Below, in pieces: positions 51,079 to 64,000 of a DNA stretch of 64,000 nucleotides. Location of the stretch: assembly GCF_019355055.1 (NCBI RefSeq), contig NZ_CP048411.1, positions 4,387,001 to 4,451,000 of the forward strand, in the 5' to 3' direction. A program made the position numbers and the translations under genes. Source of the DNA: Pseudomonas sp. MTM4. GTDB lineage: Bacteria > Pseudomonadota > Gammaproteobacteria > Pseudomonadales > Pseudomonadaceae. Below the pieces are notes generated by a model. It made no database searches. It saw only the letters and a list, made by a program, of their open reading frames with translations, and had not been told where the DNA came from. The stretch's first letter is position 1. Each line of letters begins with the position of its first letter.

Positions 51079-52269
51079 GGATGGTCTGAAAAAGACTTCC
51101 CGAATCTGGTGAAATACGCCGATCCCGTTGCCCGAGTTTCCCGATGAAGCAAATGACCTTCGCCGACGCCGAGTACGCCGGCAAGCGCAAGCAGACCCGC
51201 AAAGAGTTGTTCCTGATCGAGATGGATCAGGTGGTGCCGTGGAAGGGTTTGATTGCCCTGATCGAGCCGCACTACCCCAAGGGTGAAGGTGGTCGTCCGG
51301 CGTATCAGCTGATGGCGATGCTGCGCGTACATTTGATGCAGAACTGGTTCGGCTACAGCGATCCAGCGATGGAGGAGGCGCTGTACGAGACCACAATCTT
51401 GCGCCAGTTTGCCGGGCTGAACCTAGAGCGTATTCCCGACGAAACCACCATCCTCAATTTCCGTCGCCTGCTGGAGAAGCACGAGTTGGCGGCCGGGATT
51501 CTGGCGGTGATCAATGGTTACCTGGGCGATCGGGGCCTGTCGCTGCGCCAGGGCACCATCGTCGATGCCACGCTGATCCATGCGCCGAGTTCGACCAAGA
51601 ACAAGGACGGTAAGCGTGACCCGGAAATGCACCAGACCAAGAAGGGCAATCAGTATTACTTCGGCATGAAGGCCCACATCGGCGCGGATACCGAGTCTGG
51701 CCTGGTGCACAGCGTGGTGGGGACGGCAGCCAACGTTGCTGACGTTACCCAGGTCGACAAACTGCTGCATGGAAAGGAAAACATGGTCGGCGCCGACGCG
51801 GGTTACACCGGCGTAGAGAAACGCCCGGAACATGAAGGCCGGGAGGTGATCTGGCAGATTGCGGCCCGCCGCAGTACGTACAAGAAGCTGAGTAAGCGCA
51901 GTGCGCTGTACAAAGCCAAGCGCAAGATCGAGAAATCCAAGGCCCAGGTGCGCGCCAAAGTCGAGCACCCGTTCCGGGTGATCAAGCGCCAATTCGGCTA
52001 CGTGAAGACACGCTTCCGTGGCCTGGCGAAGAACACCGCGCAGTTGGTGACACTGTTCGCGCTGTCGAACCTGTGGATGGCGCGCCGACATTTGCTGACG
52101 AATGCAGGAGAGGTGCGTTTGTAATGCGGGAAATGGCCGGCGCGAGGTGCTCGCGCCGGCTATAAATCCGGAAAGAGGGGATGATTTGATCGTTTTTTAG
52201 CCGAATCACCGTTTTGAAATCGGCAAGGGCTGGAGTCAGCCAGAAATACCTGACTACTTCAGACCATCC
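51079..52269 (+). mobile_element. complete IS5-family insertion sequence
   Basis: A 1191-bp element with imperfect terminal inverted repeats (GGATGGTCTGAA at both ends) and a 4-bp target duplication TTAG at 51075-51078 and 52270-52273. It carries one transposase gene. Size, repeat and TAR-type 4-bp target fit the IS5 group. It lies inside a membrane-protein gene. Confidence 0.9.
51144..52124 (+). CDS. IS5-family transposase
   Basis: A 326-residue DDE transposase. DDE residues are seen in GTIVDATLIHAPSS, VGADAGYTGVEK and KVEHPFRVIKRQFG (YREK-like context R..K). N-terminal dimer/DNA-binding half starts MKQMTFADAEYAGKRKQTRK. The frame is intact. Nearly the same protein, 3'-truncated, is at 61868-62595. 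Confidence 0.95.
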   Translation: MKQMTFADAEYAGKRKQTRKELFLIEMDQVVPWKGLIALIEPHYPKGEGGRPAYQLMAMLRVHLMQNWFGYSDPAMEEALYETTILRQFAGLNLERIPDETTILNFRRLLEKHELAAGILAVINGYLGDRGLSLRQGTIVDATLIHAPSSTKNKDGKRDPEMHQTKKGNQYYFGMKAHIGADTESGLVHSVVGTAANVADVTQVDKLLHGKENMVGADAGYTGVEKRPEHEGREVIWQIAARRSTYKKLSKRSALYKAKRKIEKSKAQVRAKVEHPFRVIKRQFGYVKTRFRGLAKNTAQLVTLFALSNLWMARRHLLTNAGEVRL

Positions 52270-53180: not shown

Positions 53181-53702
53181 TTAGGACATAGAAACAGACA
53201 GCTCTTTCCCGCACCAGCTGTTGGGATAAATCCCAGCCCTGACGGCTCGGTGAAAGCTGGAGTAAGGCCAGTCGGCGACGTGCGTAACCAAGCCGTGCTT
53301 CAGCGGGTTTAGGTGGACATAGTCGACGTGATGGCGGTAGTCGCGCTCGTCTCGGATCAGGTGCTCCCAATAGCGCCGTTGCCAGATCCCTCGCTCACCA
53401 CGGGATCGTTGCGTTGCTGTCAGTACCTCTGTTTTCGGCAAGCGGCGGGCAAACGCAAATTTGATGACCTTCCAGCGCAGCGCAAAATCGGCGTCGCCAT
53501 TGGGTAGTGTCCAGACGCAATGCATGTGATCAGGCAGGACGACCCAGGCATCGATGTGAAATGGATGGCGTGAGCGGGTGGCACGCACCGTCTCGCGTAG
53601 CAGGTCGACATGGCGGACCAGCAGGTCGCTTCGACGATTGAGCAGATTGACCGTGAAGAAATACGTGGCGCCCGGGACACGGGCACGGCGGTAGCGGGAC
53701 AT
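53181..53702 (-). CDS. REP-associated tyrosine transposase (RAYT), copy 1
   Basis: A 173-residue Y1-type single-strand transposase of the IS200/IS605-like RAYT group. HUH-type metal site HMHC in LPDHMHCVWTLP and the catalytic Tyr candidate in YRHHVDYVHLNPLKHG. These proteins recognise REP hairpins. Flanked on the start side by REP families C (53746) and B (53822). About 90 per cent similar to the copy at 54048-54578. Confidence 0.9.
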   Translation of the reverse strand: MSRYRRARVPGATYFFTVNLLNRRSDLLVRHVDLLRETVRATRSRHPFHIDAWVVLPDHMHCVWTLPNGDADFALRWKVIKFAFARRLPKTEVLTATQRSRGERGIWQRRYWEHLIRDERDYRHHVDYVHLNPLKHGLVTHVADWPYSSFHRAVRAGIYPNSWCGKELSVSMS

Positions 53703-54047: not shown

Positions 54048-54578
54048 TCAGCCCGCATCACCTGCGAACCCCTGCGCCTCATCACCGCACCAATCAACTG
54101 TATAAACACCGGCCCCGACCGCCCGATGAAAACTCGAATAGGGCCAGTCGACGACGCGCTCCACCAAACCGTGCTTTAACGGATTCAAATGCACATAGTC
54201 GACGTGATGCCGATAATCGCGTTCATCCTGAACCAGATGCTCCCAATATCGCCGTTGCCAGATACCGCGCTCACCGCGAGAGAGCTGCGTTGTCGTCAGC
54301 ACTTCGGTTTTTGGTAGTCGCCTGGCAAACGCGAACTTGATGACCTTCCAGCGCAGCGAAAAATCCGCGTCGCCCTCCGGTAACGTCCAGACGCAATGCA
54401 TATGGTCCGGCAGAACGACCCAGGCATTGATATGGAATGGGTGACGCGAGCGCGTGGCACGGACCGTCTCGCGTAGCAGGTCGACATGGCGAACTAGCAG
54501 GTCGCTGCGGCGGTTAAGCAGATTGACCGTAAAGAAATACGTGGCGCCCGGCACCTGGGCGCGGCGGTATCGAGACAT
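54048..54578 (-). CDS. REP-associated tyrosine transposase (RAYT), copy 2
   Basis: A 176-residue paralogue of the RAYT at 53181-53702 with the same HMHC site (LPDHMHCVWTLPEG) and YRHHVDYVHLNPLKHG. It differs mainly at the extreme C-terminus. Each copy, its REP C and its REP B have the same layout at an offset of about 870-876 bp, so the pair arose by tandem duplication. Confidence 0.9.
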   Translation of the reverse strand: MSRYRRAQVPGATYFFTVNLLNRRSDLLVRHVDLLRETVRATRSRHPFHINAWVVLPDHMHCVWTLPEGDADFSLRWKVIKFAFARRLPKTEVLTTTQLSRGERGIWQRRYWEHLVQDERDYRHHVDYVHLNPLKHGLVERVVDWPYSSFHRAVGAGVYTVDWCGDEAQGFAGDAG

Positions 54579-55846: not shown

Positions 55847-57100
55847 TCAATCCCAACTCAAAGCCCCACCGGTCTGATACTCAATAACCCGCGTCTCAAA
55901 GAAGTTCTTCTCCTTCTTCAAGTCCATGATCTCGCTCATCCACGGGAACGGGTTGGTGGTGCCCGGGTACTCTTCCTTCAAGCCAATCTGCGTCAACCGG
56001 CGGTTGGCGATGAACTTGAGGTAATCCTCCATCATCGCGGCGTTCATGCCGAGCACGCCGCGGGGCATGGTGTCGCGGGCGTATTCGATTTCCAGCTGCG
56101 TACCCTGGAGGATCATTTGGGTCGCTTCGTCCTTCATGGCGGCGTCCCACAGGTGTGGGTTTTCGATCTTGATCTGGTTGATCACGTCGATGCCGAAGTT
56201 CAGGTGCATGGACTCGTCGCGCAGGATGTATTGGAACTGCTCGGCGGTGCCGGTCATTTTGTTGCGGCGGCCCATGGAGAGGATCTGGGTGAAGCCGCAA
56301 TAGAAGAAGATGCCTTCCAGTACGCAGTAGTAGGCGATGAGGTTGCGCAGGAACTCTTTGTCGGTCTCGACGGTGCCGGTGTTGAACTCGGGGTTGGAGA
56401 TCGAGCGGGTGTACTTGAGGCCCCATGAGGCCTTCTTCGCGACGCTCGGGATCTCGTGGTACATGTTGAAGATCTCGCCTTCATCCATGCCCAGCGATTC
56501 GATGCAGTACTGGTAAGCGTGGGTGTGGATCGCCTCTTCGAAGGCCTGGCGCAGGATGTACTGGCGGCACTCGGGGTTGGTGATCAGGCGGTACACGGCC
56601 AGCACGAGGTTGTTGGCGACCAGGCTGTCGGCGGTGGAGAAGAAGCCGAGGTTGCGCATGACGATGCGGCGTTCGTCTTCGCTGAGGCCGTCTTTGCTCT
56701 TCCACAAAGCAATGTCGGCGTTCATGTTCACTTCCTGCGGCATCCAGTGGTTGGCGCAACCATCCAGATACTTCTGCCAGGCCCAGTCGTACTTGAAGGG
56801 TACGAGCTGGTTGAGGTCGGCGCGGGCGTTGATCATCTGCTTGTCGCCGACGTGAACGCGGGCGGAGGCGCCTTCGAGGTCGTCCAGGCCTTCCTGGATG
56901 TCGAGGTCGTCCAGAGCCTTTTTGGCGCGGGCGATGGCAGCGGAGTCGTCAGCGGCTACGGCGCGGGCTTCTTCGACGGAGCCGGCGGCGTCCTGGTCGA
57001 GCTTGGCGGGGGCTTCGTTGCTGGTGGCAGCGGCTTGTGGGGCTGCGGGCGCGGCGGTGGTAGTGGTTTCTTCTTCGTCGAATTCGTCCCAGCTCAGCAT
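55847..57100 (-). CDS. nrdB: class Ia ribonucleotide reductase beta subunit
   Basis: A 417-residue R2 subunit carrying the diiron-tyrosyl radical. An acidic N-terminal extension of ~100 residues (typical of Pseudomonas NrdB) precedes the core: [27 protein letters not shown] (E/H ligands), [14 protein letters not shown] and [12 protein letters not shown] (ligands E, H); the C-terminal tail TGGALSWD docks on NrdA. ATG 57100 with GGAGAAA upstream. NrdA, normally just upstream on the same strand, is not present within the window. Confidence 0.95.
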
Positions 57101-57235
57101 GGCGGTTTCTCCTGATTGGGGACCGGTGTGGCCGGTCGGGAATGTTCTGGGCTTTTGTGTGTGCACGCAAAAGCGGGTGTTTGGTTGGGGGAGGGTGGTG
57201 GTGCCCTGCGCCCTGGTGTTCTGTATTAGGTCGGG

Positions 57236-57392: not shown

Positions 57393-57902
57393 CTGGATTG
57401 GCGGTGGCCTCGGGCTATGCGTTAACTCGGGTGGTGAGTTGGCGGATAGCGCTTCGCGAGCAAGGGCTAGGCGCCCCCCTCGCTCCTACAATGTGATTCC
57501 ACTTCGCGAATGAGAACGCAGCGTTCCCTCGCATTTGCAATTTCGCCTTTGCTTCTTCAGCTCGGTGTGAGCGCGAAGCTGAGCGAGGCAGCGCTAGGCG
57601 TCTGCCAAGTCGGAGCCCCTGAGCGTACGCCTGTACGTGATGGGGGCCGGCTTGGTAGACAACAACGCGCGGTCCGCTCAGATCCGTGCGCCAGCTAACT
57701 TCTTATTGACAAAACGCCGATGCCATAATCGTAAACATTTCTGCGCGGCCCGAGTAGTAAGGGGGGTGGCTGTTGAGGAGGGTCATTGATGAACGAAAGC
57801 GTATACATTTTGGCATAAACAGGCTCCTTTTCGGCGTGAAAGTATACGGCAGTGCCGCTGAAATTTTTTTTACGTTTTGTCGGCCTTTGCTGACCTGATT
57901 CG

Positions 57903-58601
57903 CTATGTGCGCACGAAGCGCAGTGTTCCTGCGGTGTTGCGGCCATTACGCCAGTTTCGTGCTGTCCAGTAGAAACCAGAAAGAATGAGCTGATCGTCCT
58001 TGCGTAGCACTTCCAGTTCGGCTGCTCCTATGTGGTTCGACTCGTCATCTCCCGAGGGTTCAGACAATTGCGACACGTAAACATAGGTAAGACGATGGGG
58101 TTCGTCATGAGCCGAAACCCTGGGCTTGCACATCAAACTGTAGGAGCGCGACTCCCCATTTCGCCCTTGGACGGTCATATTCACAGTGATCCGGTTGAGG
58201 GTCGCTTTAATACTCATTACCGCTTCAAACTGCTCAAGCTCGACGCTATTAACGTCATTGGGATCAAAAGCATTGAATGTCCGCTCACGTGAGTTAGCAG
58301 CATTCTGAAGCGCTTCATGGACAGAAATGTTGGATCGAAGCTGTCCTTTCCAAATGCCGGTCAGGTCAGGGAACAAGCTATCAGAGCATGCTTCTGCTGC
58401 TTTCCATATCCAGCGAAACACTGGACGGATGTTGCCTAGAAGGAATATGGCCCCAATGGTAAGACTGGCGACTCTCCAAAGGAGCGAAACGAGCTCCGTC
58501 ACGTCATCGGGCCTTTCCTGCCAGGTGACACCAAGAAAAACAAGTAGGATCAGTGCCAGTACGCCTATCACAAGGCTTTTCAGGCCGAAAACGGCATACA
58601 T
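57903..58601 (-). CDS. cap15: CBASS effector Cap15-like (2TM + beta-barrel)
   Basis: A 232-residue protein with two TM helices (VIGVLALILLVFLGV near 12-26 and LWRVASLTIGAIFLLGNI near 41-58) and a C-terminal beta-barrel matching the SMODS-associated 2TM/beta-strand-rich effector (Cap15) domain: PDLTGIWKGQLRSN, MSIKATLNRITVNM, LTYVYVSQ, HIGAAELEV and LSGFYWTARN. In the family the barrel binds a cyclic nucleotide and oligomerisation disrupts the inner membrane. ATG 58601 has GGGGG 5 nt upstream. Divergent from the CD-NTase gene with a 76-bp shared gap. Confidence 0.8.
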   Translation of the reverse strand: MYAVFGLKSLVIGVLALILLVFLGVTWQERPDDVTELVSLLWRVASLTIGAIFLLGNIRPVFRWIWKAAEACSDSLFPDLTGIWKGQLRSNISVHEALQNAANSRERTFNAFDPNDVNSVELEQFEAVMSIKATLNRITVNMTVQGRNGESRSYSLMCKPRVSAHDEPHRLTYVYVSQLSEPSGDDESNHIGAAELEVLRKDDQLILSGFYWTARNWRNGRNTAGTLRFVRT

Positions 58602-58677
58602 CTCAACCCCCTATGTTGTGGTAGACATCCGTGATTGGCACACCATATAGTGGTGTCGTCATTGGGTCAACGGAGCG

Positions 58678-59856
58678 ATGTCGATGCCAGCTTTCAACCT
58701 GCACAGTCTGTTGGACAGTACGGTTTACGCGACCACCTACCTAGACCGACTGACGCTTTCCAGCGATGAGCGAGACGAGATGCAGAGCGCTCGCACCGAA
58801 ATACGTGATCGGCTCCGTTCTAAGCTACCCGGCATGCTTCAGAAAGCACTCGGTAGTGAGCAACAGGTGCGCAAGCCGCGTTTCTTCACCCAAGGCTCGT
58901 GGGCTTACAAGACCTTGAATTCCCCTTGCCGGGATCCCCAGCAAGCGGATCTCGACGATGGAACCTATCTCCCATTTAGCTATCTTGAAGCGGCCCGTCC
59001 GTCTGTTATGAGCAATGTCTTGTTTGCCTGCGTTGAAGAAGTGCTGCAAGGCTTGGCGGATGAAAAGGGTTGGAAACTCATTGACGACAATCCAAATTGC
59101 ACGCGCCTTGAGATCGCCGGCGACAAGCACATTGATGTGCCGGCCTACAGCATTCCGGATGCTGAGTTCGAAAAGCTTAGGGAGATCCGGTCGATGGCTG
59201 TCTGCAAAGCGCTCGACAGCATCTTGGCGAGTGCCCAGCTAGACGAAGACGATAAGTGGGATTTGATGCCTACTCATGGTGTGCTCATGGCCACCAAAGA
59301 TCGCGGCTGGCGCGATAATGATCCTCGGCCAATTAAGGATTGGGTTGAATCCGAAGTTGCTTTAAAGACCGAGCAGTTACGTCGGGTCATGCGCTACATA
59401 AAGGGGTGGCGTGACAATCAGGTATGGAGTGGTGAGGATCCCAAGTCCATTCTCTTGATGGTCGCAGTTGCGAAAGCGCTCGATGTGTCACTACCTCGAC
59501 GCGATGATTTAGCCTTGCTGAAAGTTGCAAAGGAACTGCCCAAAATTCTCCAAGGCAAGGTCATGAACCCCACGACAATTAACAAACCCATCGAGGAGCA
59601 AGAAGATATTGCTGCGCGTTTGGATAAGGATGGCATTCGTGCCGACGTGGTGGCTCGCCTCACTCGTTTAGCACAGCAACTGGACGAGGCAATTTATCGC
59701 TCTAGTACTCCGGAGCAAGCATGCAAGCTTCTGCAAGAAGCATTCGGTCATCGTATGCCCTTCGATCCAGGGCGAGTGGTGATTGATACAGTTCAAAGCA
59801 CTCCTCTAGAGAGGACGAAAGCAGTGTCCCCTGTCGGTATTATGACGGCGGGTTAA
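58678..59856 (+). CDS. CD-NTase, DncV-like cyclic nucleotide synthase
   Basis: A 392-residue cGAS/DncV-like nucleotidyltransferase. GSW at 73-75 and DLDDG at 91-95 give the catalytic Asp91 and Asp93; the third Asp is D153 in KHIDVPAY. RFFTQGSWAYKTLNSP and DDGTYLPF are close to V. cholerae DncV (RFWTQGSFQYDTLN, DDGTYMPM), so it belongs with that clade, where 3',3'-cGAMP is the known product of DncV; the real product cannot be read from sequence. ATG 58678 or 58684; the latter has GGAG at 8 nt. Last base before cap2 by 3 bp. Confidence 0.9.
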   Translation: MSMPAFNLHSLLDSTVYATTYLDRLTLSSDERDEMQSARTEIRDRLRSKLPGMLQKALGSEQQVRKPRFFTQGSWAYKTLNSPCRDPQQADLDDGTYLPFSYLEAARPSVMSNVLFACVEEVLQGLADEKGWKLIDDNPNCTRLEIAGDKHIDVPAYSIPDAEFEKLREIRSMAVCKALDSILASAQLDEDDKWDLMPTHGVLMATKDRGWRDNDPRPIKDWVESEVALKTEQLRRVMRYIKGWRDNQVWSGEDPKSILLMVAVAKALDVSLPRRDDLALLKVAKELPKILQGKVMNPTTINKPIEEQEDIAARLDKDGIRADVVARLTRLAQQLDEAIYRSSTPEQACKLLQEAFGHRMPFDPGRVVIDTVQSTPLERTKAVSPVGIMTAG

Positions 59857-59859
59857 ACA

Positions 59860-61524
59860 GTGGAACTGAGTAGGATCCATTCGGCATTAATCGGGTACGG
59901 CTACGAGCTTCAGCAAAGTATGCCGTACCCAATATACAAGGGACTTCTTCGCCCGAAGGGCGAAGAAGTCCCCATCCGTATTCATTTTTCGGATGTATCA
60001 CTTGTTTCTCTTCCATCCATTGAGCTTGTTGAGCGTCCGGTAGGGCTGCCAAAGGTGTGCGCTCACATTAATCCGTATGGATTTTTATGTTACTTGGGGC
60101 GTGATCAAGCCTATCTTCCGAGAGGTAATATTGGTGGAGCGGTTGTAGGTTGTCTTGAGTTAGCCCAGCGGCTTCTCGAACGACTTCTCGATGGCGATTC
60201 TCTGATAGATACTCGTGATGAATTTTTGGTCTATTGGGGTGGTGGCGATCTACTTCTTGATATTCCCCAATCAAGATCTGAGGGACTGTATGAGCATTGT
60301 TCAATAATTACTCTCCCCAAAAATGATGCTCGCGAGGAAATATGGATTTTGGGGAGCGACGAAGAGGCTCTAGTTGCTCGCTACGAGAACTGGGGTGGCC
60401 AAGAAGCCTATTCAAACTTGATATTACGGGTCGTGGATTCAGTTTCTTTGCTTGGTGTTTCTGAAGAGTGGCCGCCCACTAATCTCCAACAATTATCTAC
60501 GTGGTTAAAGGTTGCAGATTATAAAGCCCATGGTGGACTAATGTCTGTGCTGAAAGATGCATACAGGCTTCGCCAAAATCTTGTTCTTCTTTTGGTTCGG
60601 GCACCTAATTGCTCTTGCGCAGTTCTTCTTAATCTTTCTGTTGTGAATAAAATCGTTAAGGCTAGGACTCCAGATCAGTTTATGCGTTCTGTTCTCCGGA
60701 GCTACCCTAGAAATGTAAAGGTTAGCCGGCTAAGTCCGATTCCGATTGACGCGGAGTCGTGGTTGTCGCGCAATCTTATGGAGGGATATAAAAGTCTTGC
60801 AGGAAAAAATATTGCTTTAGTTGGTTGTGGTGCGATTGGTGGATATTTGTCAGATTTACTTGTGAAATCTGGTGCTGGTTTTTTAGGTGGTTCGTTAATA
60901 CTTATTGATGATGATGATTTGTCTATGGGTAATTTGGGGCGTCACTTTCTTGGCTTTGAATATATTGGCCAGGACAAGGCTTCCGCTCTTAGTTTAGAGT
61001 TACGTAACAAATACCCGGAGGTGAAGTTGCACGCATACAGCGATAGAGTGAAAAATCTGAGTGTTTTTTCAGAGGTGGACTTGGTCGTCGATGCAACTGG
61101 TAGTGAGGCATTTTCTCAGTATTTAGGCGAGAATTTTATTTCCGGAAATCTTCCTCCAATAGTATTTTCATGGGTTGTCGGAGCGGGCTGTGGTGCTCAA
61201 GCCTATTTATTGCATGAACGCGAACAAGCCTGCGTAAGTTGCTTGGAGCATACTAAACCAGGCGGCCAGCTTTCGGTTATGCGGCGAGAGTATGAGATGA
61301 AAGTGAAGAATGCAGGTGCATGCGGAGATTGGCTTGTTCCATTCTCCGCGCCTGCTGCACTGCATGCGGCAGCTCTAGCTGCTGAAATCGCCCTTGATTG
61401 GTCAAGTGGAATATTCAAGCCTACTTTACGAAGTATTACTTTGGACTATGCAAATGGAAAACAGGTGAAGCCGATTTCGCCTAGACAGAGAGCAAACTGC
61501 GAAGTATGCAGCCGCTCGCACTGA
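59860..61524 (+). CDS. cap2: CBASS E2-E1 fusion conjugation enzyme (Cap2)
   Basis: A 554-residue protein from GTG 59860. The N-terminal E2-like part has CAHINPYGFLCYLG with the candidate catalytic Cys77; the C-terminal E1/ThiF adenylation domain begins with NIALVGCGAIGGYLSDLL near residue 315 and contains LIDDDDLSMGNLGRH and a Cys pair set (CVSC ... CEVC) that would bind zinc. Cap2 conjugates the CD-NTase C-terminus to target molecules and primes it. The CD-NTase ends in a Gly (ITAG-like MTAG), as needed for conjugation. The gene is AT-rich. Overlaps cap3 by 19 bp. Confidence 0.9.
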   Translation: MELSRIHSALIGYGYELQQSMPYPIYKGLLRPKGEEVPIRIHFSDVSLVSLPSIELVERPVGLPKVCAHINPYGFLCYLGRDQAYLPRGNIGGAVVGCLELAQRLLERLLDGDSLIDTRDEFLVYWGGGDLLLDIPQSRSEGLYEHCSIITLPKNDAREEIWILGSDEEALVARYENWGGQEAYSNLILRVVDSVSLLGVSEEWPPTNLQQLSTWLKVADYKAHGGLMSVLKDAYRLRQNLVLLLVRAPNCSCAVLLNLSVVNKIVKARTPDQFMRSVLRSYPRNVKVSRLSPIPIDAESWLSRNLMEGYKSLAGKNIALVGCGAIGGYLSDLLVKSGAGFLGGSLILIDDDDLSMGNLGRHFLGFEYIGQDKASALSLELRNKYPEVKLHAYSDRVKNLSVFSEVDLVVDATGSEAFSQYLGENFISGNLPPIVFSWVVGAGCGAQAYLLHEREQACVSCLEHTKPGGQLSVMRREYEMKVKNAGACGDWLVPFSAPAALHAAALAAEIALDWSSGIFKPTLRSITLDYANGKQVKPISPRQRANCEVCSRSH

Positions 61525-61867
61525 TTGATCCGGGGTCGGGGCGGCTTGTAGTAGTGAGCGCTTTGGTGATTGAGCTTGTTGCTCGGTATAAGCAGCTGAA
61601 AGCGGGTGACCCGGAGTCTGGCGGGATTCTGATTGGTCTGCGAAGAGGGGAGCATTTCGAGATTACTGCTGCCACGATGCCCCAAGTAGACGATAAGAGA
61701 ACTAGATTCAGATTCGAGCGTGTCGAGCGTGGGCATGCTGAAGCGCTCAAGAAGCGTTGGGCTGTGAGTATGGGTGCCGAAAATTATTTAGGGGAATGGC
61801 ATACCCATCCAGAGGATCACCCATCCCCATCATCGATTGATGTGAGCGAGTGGCAACGAGCCGTCGT
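61506..61867 (+). pseudogene. cap3: CBASS JAMM protease Cap3, 3' end replaced by IS
   Basis: About 120 native residues from ATG 61506. The JAMM metalloprotease motif is complete: Glu37 in PESGGILIG, His99 and His101 in EWHTHPED, Ser109 and Asp112 in SPSSID. Right after SEWQRAV the reading frame runs into a truncated IS5-family element and stops at 61994 (162 aa total, about 40 foreign). Cap3 normally removes the CD-NTase-Cap2 conjugate; activity of the truncated form is uncertain. Confidence 0.82.
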
Positions 61868-62660
61868 CGACGCGCCGCGACCTGCCAGATCACTTCGCGG
61901 CCCGCATGTTCTGAGCGCTTTTCGACCCCGGTGTAACCGGCATCGGCGCAGACGACGTTCTCCACGCCATGCAGCAGTTTGTCGACCTGGGTGACATCCG
62001 CCACGTTGGCCGCCGTGCCAACCACGCTATGCACCAGCCCCGACTCGTCATCCACACCGATGTGGGCCTTCATGCCGAAGTAGTACTGGTTACCCTTCTT
62101 GGTCTGGTGCATCTCCGGGTCGCGCTTACCGTCCTTGTTCTTGGTCGAACTGGGTGCATGGATCAACGTAGCATCGACGATAGTGCCCTGACGCAGCGAC
62201 AGACCGCGGTCACCGAGATAGCCATTGATGACGGCCAGGATACCGGCAGCCAGTTCGTGTTTCTCCAGCAGGCGACGGAAGTTGAGGATGGTGGTTTCGT
62301 CGGGAATGCGCTCCAGGCTCAGCCCGGCGAACTGACGCAGGATGGTCGTCTCGTAGAGCGCTTCTTCCATGGCCGGGTCGCTGTAGCCGAACCAGTTCTG
62401 CATCAAATGTACGCGCAGCATCGCCATCAGCGGATACGCCGGACGACCACCTTCACCCTTGGGGTAATGCGGCTCGATCAAGGCAATCAAACCCTTCCAC
62501 GGCACCACCTGATCCATCTCGATCAGGAACAGCTCTTTACGGGTCTGTTTGCGCTTGCCGGCGTACTCGGCGTCGGCGAAGGTCATCTGCTTCATCGGAA
62601 AACTCGGCGGGTGGAGTCCGGACATTTTGCCAAAATTAGGAAGTCTTCTTCAGAGTTTCC
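61868..62660 (-). mobile_element. truncated IS5-family element
   Basis: The left end (GGAAACTCTGAAGAAGACTTCC at 62639-62660, minus strand) with its flanking TTAG (62661-62664) is intact; the transposase runs 62595-61868 on the minus strand and is about 93 per cent identical to the intact copy at 51144, but the last ~85 codons and the right end are missing and are joined directly to cap3. The terminal repeats differ from the intact IS, so it is a sister element, not a copy. Confidence 0.85.
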
Positions 62661-62709
62661 TTAGTGCTTCGCTGTTTGCAGTGCTAAGCCAGGTCGCTCC
62701 ACGGCAGAG

Positions 62710-63747
62710 TCAATCCTCACGCATGAATTTCTCATAAGAGTGAGCGTGATAGGAACACAGCCCACCATTGTGCTGGTCTTCTTGCCCCAGACGCTCCTCA
62801 CACATCTCGCATTCCGTGTATTCGAGTTCAGCGGCACACCACAGGCAGGACTGCTCATAGATGAGGAACGCTCCACGGCCACACTGATTGCAGCCCTCAA
62901 GGCTGGCCTCGCCTCCGTCACGCGGGTCGTAACTATGGGCGTTCTCCAGCGCGACGACCATGAGCGGGGCAACCAAGTCTGTGTATCCACAGGCGATACA
63001 GATAGCCTTAAAGCGGTCATCGTTGCGTTTAACAGTATCACCTGCGTCCAGACTTTCTTGCGCAGGCGCTAATAAAGTTGAACCGCATTCCGGGCACTTA
63101 GACTCCTTCAGCCAAGGCTCCATTCCTTCAGGCACGTAGGCCTCAGACCAAGCCTCTTCGCATCGTTTTGTGGTGTCTACAAAGAAGTTGTGATGCAACA
63201 GCATGAGCTGCCAAGCGTCCCCGAGGATAGCTGCTGGTGACTCCTCCAGCTCCGTCTGAATGAAATCCCGTAACACCGGGAACAGCTCCGCCACGAATTC
63301 GGCTACCTCACCTAGCGTGTGAGCGGGATGGAGATGCTCAAGATGGTTGCGGCACGCCTGCAGTTTTTCGATCACATCCCAATCAACATCTATCTCAAAA
63401 GCTTCAAAACGCTTTTGGATCGTTCCCACATCGATTGTGGTGGGCCTGAACTTGCCCACCGGCACCCATGCGATACCCCCTTCCCCATCTGAATGAGGCA
63501 AAACCTCCGGTGGATTGAAGATTAGCGCCGCAGCATTAGCGGGGTCATCGACACACGTAGCGATTTTGTACTTGAATAGGAGCAGTACGCCTGCGAAGAG
63601 GTTTCGAATTGCCGAGAGCGCCCGCGCTGGATCGCCCGCTGGATGTCTGCAGCGCTCGAAGTCCTCAACGCCTAACCGAATAGAGGTAAGCGCGTTCTCC
63701 CGAAGCTTCGCGGCATCAAGCCTCGGCATCGGGCGTTGGGTAGCCAT
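62710..63747 (-). CDS. zinc-ribbon protein of unknown function
   Basis: A 345-residue soluble protein. The N-terminal ~200 residues are helical and HEPN-like in feel (RNHLEHLHPAHTLGEVAEFV), followed by three Cys pairs: CPEC...CIAC (about 224-255), CNQC...CLWC (about 291-312) and CEMC with CSYH at the C-terminus, giving two or three zinc ribbons. Start ATG 63747 (MATQRPMPR) after AAGGG. No family recognised. The HEPN resemblance is inference from RNHxxH (R-N-H-L-E-H), the usual HEPN RNase motif being Rx4-6H. Confidence 0.65.
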   Translation of the reverse strand: MATQRPMPRLDAAKLRENALTSIRLGVEDFERCRHPAGDPARALSAIRNLFAGVLLLFKYKIATCVDDPANAAALIFNPPEVLPHSDGEGGIAWVPVGKFRPTTIDVGTIQKRFEAFEIDVDWDVIEKLQACRNHLEHLHPAHTLGEVAEFVAELFPVLRDFIQTELEESPAAILGDAWQLMLLHHNFFVDTTKRCEEAWSEAYVPEGMEPWLKESKCPECGSTLLAPAQESLDAGDTVKRNDDRFKAICIACGYTDLVAPLMVVALENAHSYDPRDGGEASLEGCNQCGRGAFLIYEQSCLWCAAELEYTECEMCEERLGQEDQHNGGLCSYHAHSYEKFMRED

Positions 63748-64000
63748 ATGTTGATTTCCCTTCACGGCCTCAGATAACTCAGCAGATATTAGCTGACTGC
63801 ATCTGTGAACGGCACGCACTTCCCAGAGCCAGCTTAGTCTCGGGGCGACGCCTACAAGAAAGGGGGGTTGTCAGCATTTACCAACGTCCTTCCTTAGCCG
63901 CAAGAAGACGCCTCCATTCAAAGACTATCCTCGCACGCCAATAATTTCATCCCAGCGCGTCGTGTACCGTTGACTCAACATCTCCCGACGGATAGCCCAA

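What the first reader, a model, noticed from the sequence alone, without database searches (positions are those of the whole stretch)
57903..61867. Type II CBASS anti-phage locus with a Cap15-like effector
CD-NTase (DncV-like GSW...DLDDG...HIDV), Cap2 (E2-E1 fusion) and Cap3 (JAMM) stand in order on the plus strand, with a 2TM/beta-barrel Cap15-like effector next to them. All four components of a type II CBASS system are present. The usual operon puts the effector and CD-NTase in one direction; here it is divergent.
Basis: partly seen in the sequence, partly recalled or inferred. Interest (0 to 1): 0.8.

Follow-up and report, generated by a model that had tools for sequence, protein, structure and literature searches.

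The report
Anti-phage CBASS locus, Cap3 gene truncated
This is a known type of bacterial anti-phage immune system (type II CBASS with a Cap15-type membrane effector) carried on a mobile island between two housekeeping genes; one of its four genes has lost its end next to a broken insertion sequence.

Summary
The effector matches Cap15/2TM profiles, the cyclase is a cGAS/DncV CD-NTase ending in glycine, and Cap2 is a full E2-E1 fusion. Two corrections. First, cap3 is incomplete: about 121 codons remain (154 in the nearest relative found). At 61867/61868 it runs into an ISPa16-like IS5 fragment that has itself lost its end. Second, divergence is not unusual for this effector group: of 19 related loci, 16 have a detectable cyclase and 14 of these are divergent; 12 of the 13 with Cap2 are. 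Pseudomonas mendocina EF27 has the same order beside an nrdB gene, with an intact Cap3. The locus lies at one end of a ~35.3-kb insertion at the 3' end of nrdA; in 51 of 54 genomes of the genus (this one included) nrdA and nrdB are under 0.8 kb apart, and a tyrosine recombinase sits at the other end. Most likely it is a working or recently working type II CBASS that has lost its own deconjugase: a new member of a known kind. No structure was predicted; the machine stayed busy.

The parts
57903..58601 (-). cap15: S-2TM-beta effector, 232 aa; two hydrophobic segments (within ~1-30 and ~36-62), then the cyclic-dinucleotide receptor domain (122-230)
   Evidence: PDLC00671 1.5e-88; PF18153 36 bits, cut-off 31.2; PF18153 at E <= 0.01 in 11 of 11 aligned proteins, window included; hydropathy; 69% identical to P. 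mendocina EF27
58602..58677 (.). 76-bp intergenic region with two promoter-like sites facing opposite ways (+ 58622-58651, - 58670-58642) whose -10 boxes overlap by 2 bases inside the palindrome ACACCATATAGTGGTGT (58640-58656)
   Evidence: 2 sites found, 0.2 expected; the same two in P. mendocina, 0.1 expected; palindrome identical 17 of 17 in P. mendocina, region 62 of 76 identical. But 264 of 2000 shuffles also hold a palindrome with 6-bp arms, and of 8 other divergent gaps read (L006, L007, L016-L018, L020, L022, L025) only L006 holds one. Consensus matches only
58678..59856 (+). cdn: cGAS/DncV-type CD-NTase, 392 aa, aspartates D91, D93, D153, C-terminal glycine (start may be 58684, where the P. 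mendocina protein begins)
   Evidence: NF041078 320 bits, cut-off 150; PF21654 and PF21713 over cut-off; DncV structures 4.5e-39; D91, D93, D153 invariant and last residue G or A in 12 of 12 sequences, window included
59860..61524 (+). cap2: E2-E1 conjugating enzyme, 554 aa, GTG start; candidate active-site cysteines C77 (E2) and C488 (E1)
   Evidence: PDLC00853 4e-128; ThiF 82.6 bits and Prok-E2_B 26.9 bits, both over cut-off; C77 and C488 are the only cysteines invariant in 12 of 12, window included
61506..61867 (+). cap3, N-terminal part only (~121 codons); the frame then reads on through IS DNA to 61994 (162 aa in all)
   Evidence: homology ends at residue ~121; 71% identity over residues 1-119 to the 154-aa P. 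mendocina Cap3; E37, H99, H101, S109, D112 present; C-terminal IVG segment lost
61868..62664 (-). ISPa16-like IS5 fragment, lacking the last ~253 nt of its transposase gene (the side that abuts cap3)
   Evidence: NF033581 285 bits
62710..63819 (-). neighbouring gene, 369 aa, matching a PADLOC model named PDC-S64 ('phage defence candidate', meaning recalled)
   Evidence: 1.1e-33
57712..64000 (.). window part of a ~35.3-kb island (genome 4444712-4480012, ends good to a few bases) inserted at the 3' end of nrdA, between nrdA and nrdB; its other end, outside the window, holds tyrosine recombinases
   Evidence: alignments to 7 unbroken nrdA-nrdB stretches; gap survey; recombinases
55847..57166 (-). 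nrdB, the chromosomal flank (not part of the system)
   Evidence: NF005550 709.9 bits

Best explanation
A type II CBASS anti-phage locus with a Cap15 effector, carried at one end of a mobile island between nrdA and nrdB. On phage infection the cGAS-type cyclase makes a cyclic dinucleotide, most likely cGAMP. It binds the Cap15 barrel, the two-TM part then disrupts the inner membrane, and the infected cell dies or stops growing. Cap2 joins the cyclase's C-terminal glycine to cell proteins and so primes it. The Cap3 deconjugase has lost its C-terminal fifth next to an IS5 remnant and is probably inactive, so conjugation would run one way unless another JAB protein stands in. Shown here: gene identities, conserved active-site positions, the truncation and the island. 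Inferred: the nucleotide, membrane killing, and loss of Cap3 activity.
For: Profiles for all four genes; DncV structures match the cyclase; catalytic aspartates, two Cap2 cysteines and the cyclase C-terminal G/A conserved in 12 of 12 sequences, window included; complete relative in P. mendocina EF27 with the same order; pN 0.086-0.194 against pS 0.71-0.80 between the window and EF27 across the four genes; cap3/IS junction at 61867/61868, the boundary at which four other long copies in the genome and a plasmid copy also start to match. Papers, passages only: Cap2 conjugates cGAS through a C-terminal Gly/Ala and Cap3 is the isopeptidase (PMC10097602); [quoted passage not shown] cereus CBASS, and Cap3 is dispensable in some other systems (PMC11153139); Cap15 disrupts the host membrane (PMC10686824).
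Against: The Cap3 fragment keeps E37, H99, H101, S109 and D112, so loss of activity is not certain. Two other E1+JAB pairs in the genome might act in trans. No structure was obtained, and Cap15 had no significant sequence match to a solved structure. Expression was not tested. dS is saturated (infinite for two of the four genes), so selection after the truncation cannot be judged.
Confidence: 0.85

Rival explanations
1. A decaying CBASS remnant: the IS event that cut cap3 is the first step of loss and the locus no longer defends.
For: cap3 and the IS are both truncated at their shared junction; genes between cap3 and the PDC-S64 gene may have been deleted too (inference).
Against: The other three genes are open, full length against EF27 and keep conserved active-site positions; the four genes show far fewer amino-acid than silent changes against EF27 (dS saturated, so it says nothing about the time after the truncation); two relatives with Cap2 (L024, L044) also show no detectable Cap3.
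Confidence: 0.2
2. The truncated Cap3 still deconjugates the cyclase, or one of the two other JAB proteins of the genome does, so nothing changes functionally.
For: The expected metal-site and catalytic residues E37, H99, H101, S109, D112 remain (roles recalled from the JAMM family); other JAB genes lie at 227.5 kb and 2.937 Mb, each beside an E1-like gene.
Against: The lost segment holds I131-V132-G133, present in at least 9 of 10 aligned Cap3 proteins, and ~41 unrelated residues replace it; the other JABs score only 35.5 and 32.3 bits, far below the Cap3 cut-off of 200.
Confidence: 0.25
3. The effector belongs to a Panoptes (mCpol/OptE) system rather than CBASS.
For: OptE and Cap15 are related (PMC12657218 passages), and mCpol stands near the CBASS in L006, L018 and L020.
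Against: A profile from three mCpol proteins found none in the ORFs (50 aa or more) of the window and the island stretches; the gene adjoins a CD-NTase 76 bp away, and 14 of 16 related loci with a cyclase share that divergent pairing.
Confidence: 0.02

Closest known systems
Pseudomonas mendocina EF27 CBASS locus (L015, NZ_VRYE01000095.1)
   Same: Same gene order and divergence, beside an nrdB gene whose product is 89% identical; protein identities 69% (Cap15), 85% (cyclase), 74% (Cap2), 71% (Cap3 residues 1-119)
   Different: Cap3 intact at 154 aa; no close copy of the recombinase found in that draft genome (best E 7.8e-5); its contig ends just beyond cap3, so the island there is unresolved
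Type II CBASS with cGAS, Cap2 and Cap3 (E. coli TW11681, V. cholerae, P. aeruginosa and E. cloacae systems, PMC10097602, passages)
   Same: cyclase ending in G or A, E2-E1 Cap2, JAB Cap3
   Different: Those systems use CapV or Cap4 effectors and keep Cap3; here the effector is Cap15 and Cap3 is cut
Type I-B CBASS with CdnE03 and Cap15 of Staphylococcus schleiferi (PMC10686824, passages)
   Same: Cap15 effector that disrupts the host membrane
   Different: Two-gene operon, E-clade cyclase, no Cap2 or Cap3
Divergent Cap15-cGAS-Cap2 loci of alphaproteobacterial plasmids and chromosomes (L005-L007, L016-L018, L020, L025, L041, L044)
   Same: Effector divergent from the cyclase operon
   Different: Cap15 only 26-33% identical; L005 and L041 also carry CapV; no Cap3 detected in L044

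Membership tests
Type II CBASS | CD-NTase of the cGAS/DncV family with catalytic aspartates | tested here: met
   NF041078 over cut-off; D91, D93, D153 aligned with DncV and invariant in 12 of 12, window included
Type II CBASS | Cap2 with E1 and E2 domains and active-site cysteines | tested here: met
   ThiF and Prok-E2_B over cut-off; C77 and C488 invariant in 12 of 12, window included; that these are the active cysteines is inferred
Type II CBASS | cyclase C-terminal residue Gly or Ala (feature from PMC10097602) | tested here: met
   ends MTAG; G or A in 12 of 12, window included
Type II CBASS | intact Cap3 (JAB) deconjugase | tested here: not met
   N-terminal ~121 codons only; NF050170 116.6 bits, cut-off 200. 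Filed as type II all the same because Cap2 is what sets the type apart (recalled), and Cap3 is reported dispensable for defence in some systems and needed against some phages in others (PMC11153139 passages)
Cap15 effector (S-2TM-beta) | cyclic-dinucleotide receptor domain by profile | tested here: met
   PF18153 36 bits, cut-off 31.2; PDLC00671 1.5e-88; no NCBIfam hit
Cap15 effector (S-2TM-beta) | two N-terminal transmembrane segments | tested here: met
   Kyte-Doolittle windows of 1.6 or more within residues 1-30 and 36-62; none above 0.58 after residue 70
Cap15 effector (S-2TM-beta) | beta-barrel fold | not tested
   structure predictor busy at 13 of 13 tries; no significant sequence hit to a solved structure
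Cap15 effector (S-2TM-beta) | membrane disruption when cyclic nucleotide binds | not testable with these tools
   needs an experiment
Integrative mobile island | empty site in relatives and a recombinase at one end | tested here: met
gamma-Mobile-Trio element (name recalled; listing only) | GmtX, GmtY and GmtZ proteins | tested here: inconclusive
   the four recombinase-end genes matched no NCBIfam model so named; whether the library holds such models was not checked

The most novel reading that the evidence does not exclude
A natural Cap3-less state of a type II CBASS in which Cap2 conjugates the cyclase irreversibly, so the Cap15 system sits permanently primed (or permanently parked on its targets). 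The divergent, overlapping cap15/cdn promoters would then be the main remaining brake.
Probability: 0.3. Interest if true: 0.45.

Novelty: new member of a known kind. Interest (0 to 1): 0.27.

Why it matters
What Cap3 does in type II CBASS is still argued: helpful in B. cereus and for some phages in E. coli, dispensable elsewhere (PMC11153139 passages). A native locus with a cut cap3, beside a complete relative 72% identical over 4.3 kb of DNA, is a ready natural comparison. The nrdA 3' end is also a place to look for defence islands in this genus. Otherwise the system is ordinary.

Tried and rejected
Rejected or left open: (1) 'Divergent layout is unusual': 14 of 16 related loci with a cyclase are divergent. 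My first count (single-sequence searches) missed the cyclases of L019 and L021; they are weak (9.6e-8 and 9.8e-5), and without them the count is 12 of 14. The profiles were built partly from the same loci. (2) Phage-borne origin: no match for Cap15 at E <= 1e-5 in 50,697 phage records, and none in viral contigs with peptide patterns from one protein (a weak test). (3) EF27 as the same mobile element: its draft genome has no close recombinase and its nrdA contig ends inside the gene, so this is open. (4) The second, weak Cap15 hit in the genus (G004, E 2.6e-5): the fetched stretch L003 gave no hit to my four profiles, so it is not counted among the 19 loci. L004 is the same locus as L024 and is counted once. 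(5) Palindrome as proof of an operator: 264 of 2000 shuffles hold one with 6-bp arms, and only 1 of 8 other divergent gaps does. (6) The Cap15 profile search of solved structures gave nothing better than E 0.059. (7) The top paper of the nrdA search (PMC3826726, passages) is about an nrdB gene carried on an element, not nrdA as an insertion site. Not done: structure prediction and fold search. The host genus was not named by any search.

Full report
What is there. The minus-strand 232-aa protein matches PADLOC 2TM effector models (best PDLC00671, 1.5e-88) and Pfam Cap15_CD_rec over its curated cut-off (36 against 31.2 bits); NCBIfam has no hit. It has two N-terminal hydrophobic segments. The plus-strand 392-aa protein matches the NCBIfam CBASS cGAMP synthase (320 bits, cut-off 150) and DncV crystal structures (4.5e-39). 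The next gene, 554 aa, matches E1-E2 models (4e-128), with ThiF and Prok-E2_B domains over cut-off. The last frame matches Cap3/JAB models, but only up to residue ~121.

Active sites. In an alignment of 12 loci, the window among them, the cyclase residues D91, D93 and D153 and the Cap2 cysteines C77 and C488 are invariant, and the cyclase ends in G or A in 12 of 12. That C-terminal rule is reported for operons with full-length Cap2 and Cap3 (PMC10097602, passages seen).

The broken gene. The complete Cap3 of Pseudomonas mendocina EF27 is 154 aa; the window protein matches its residues 1-119 at 71% identity and then stops matching. From 61868 to 62664 the DNA is an ISPa16-like IS5 element, about 89% identical to the best plasmid copies, and it matches five other places in the same genome, one of them short. 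Against the plasmid copy L008, annotated with a 981-nt transposase gene, the window copy lacks about 253 nt of the gene on the side that touches cap3. So both cap3 and the IS are cut at one junction; an IS insertion followed by a deletion is the simplest history (inference). The fragment keeps E37, H99, H101, S109 and D112. In an alignment of 10 Cap3 proteins, the window among them, 12 columns are invariant and lie in the part that is kept; I131-V132-G133, present in at least 9 of 10, is in the part that is lost. Loss of activity is therefore likely but not shown.

Orientation. I examined 19 loci other than the window: all 12 from the genome scan, which rested on two short peptide patterns, and all 7 plasmid records with a Cap15 match. 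With profiles built partly from the same loci, a cyclase is found in 16: 14 divergent and 2 co-directional (L024, L042). Two of the 14 (L019, L021) rest on weak cyclase matches. The 3 without a detected cyclase are L023, L026 and L043. Of the 13 with Cap2, 12 are divergent; Cap3 is found in 11 of these 13, in L005 and L041 cut by the end of the stretch, and not in L024 or L044. L005 and L041 are near relatives that also carry CapV between cyclase and Cap15. The sample was gathered by Cap15 similarity, so it speaks for this effector group, not for CBASS at large. The effector itself is rare near home: at E <= 1e-3, 2 of 56 genomes of the genus, the second weak; at E <= 1e-15, 2 of 369 genomes of the class, each count including this genome.

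Promoter region. The 76-bp gap holds one promoter-like site in each direction, with -10 boxes that overlap (2 found, 0.2 expected). The same pair is present in EF27 (2 found, 0.1 expected), and a 17-bp palindrome over the -10 boxes is identical in both. Palindromes with such arms are not rare by chance (264 of 2000 shuffles), and of 8 other divergent gaps only that of L006 holds one, so an operator is only a suggestion.

Where it sits. nrdB lies at 55847-57166, but nrdA is 36 kb away. Of the 56 genomes of the genus searched, 54, this one included, have strong matches to both genes. In 51 of these the matched parts are 291-761 bp apart, in G006 6,441 bp, in G000 36,037 bp, and in G020 they are on different contigs. 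Aligned to 7 unbroken nrdA-nrdB stretches, the island runs from about window 57712 to genome 4480012, right at the nrdA stop codon. At the nrdA end stand a tyrosine recombinase (PF00589 over cut-off), a second integrase-like protein that stays below the cut-offs, and two proteins without matches. The first recombinase occurs at E <= 1e-40 in 2 of 56 genomes, G000 and G006, and in both it lies beside nrdA. In EF27 the CBASS also stands beside nrdB (89% identical protein), but no close recombinase was found there and its nrdA contig breaks off. Other island genes that I scanned include a PDC-S64 match, a PDC-S06 match (3.4e-181), an FRG-domain protein and chromate transport genes, and UmuC; not every island gene was scanned.

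How it most likely works. By established knowledge of the families, infection activates the cyclase, its cyclic dinucleotide opens or assembles Cap15, and the membrane fails. Cap2 conjugates the cyclase and primes it. [quoted passage not shown] cereus CBASS, it mattered for T4 and T6 but not lambda or T2 in E. coli, and it was dispensable in V. cholerae and P. aeruginosa systems (PMC11153139, passages). The window's locus could therefore still defend. Two other E1+JAB pairs in the genome might supply a substitute. No mCpol gene was found in the window or island stretches, which speaks against a Panoptes reading.

Novelty. The parts are known and the order occurs in many relatives. I searched the paper library for Cap15 with CBASS, Cap3 with Cap2, gamma-mobile-trio, CBASS with tyrosine recombinase, nrdA islands, divergent Cap15, broken cap3 and divergent CBASS effectors. 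I saw the listings and passages of five papers (PMC10097602, PMC11153139, PMC12657218, PMC10686824, PMC3826726). No listed title describes this locus, a naturally broken cap3 or an nrdA defence island, but the papers were not read through for it. The adjacency of mCpol to CBASS seen in L006, L018 and L020 is already reported as a trend (PMC12657218, passages).

Noticed in passing
genome 4444712-4480012 (window 57712 to past its right end): A ~35.3-kb island inserted at the nrdA stop codon, separating nrdA from nrdB; G006 has a ~6-kb insertion with a related recombinase (55% identical) at the same place.
   Followed up: partly
62710-63819 (-): 369-aa protein matching PADLOC model PDC-S64 (1.1e-33).
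   Followed up: no
L045 182-2473 (genome 4467181-4469472): 763-aa protein in the same island matching PADLOC model PDC-S06 (3.4e-181); it looks like an ATPase by eye.
   Followed up: no
L049 and L050 (genome 227.5 kb and 2.937 Mb): Two further gene pairs, an E1 (ThiF-like, by eye) plus a JAB protein, in the same genome, function unknown.
   Followed up: no
L006 6280-6660, L018 9540-9776, L020 2696-3109: mCpol genes with a second 2TM effector near the CBASS locus, i.e. Panoptes beside CBASS; already reported as a trend in PMC12657218.
   Followed up: partly
51085-51871 (-): A second ISPa16-like IS5 copy in the window, 87% identical to the one at cap3.
   Followed up: no
53181-53702 and 54048-54578 (-): Two near-identical proteins that look like REP-associated transposases (name from memory; no Pfam hit for the first).
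   Followed up: no
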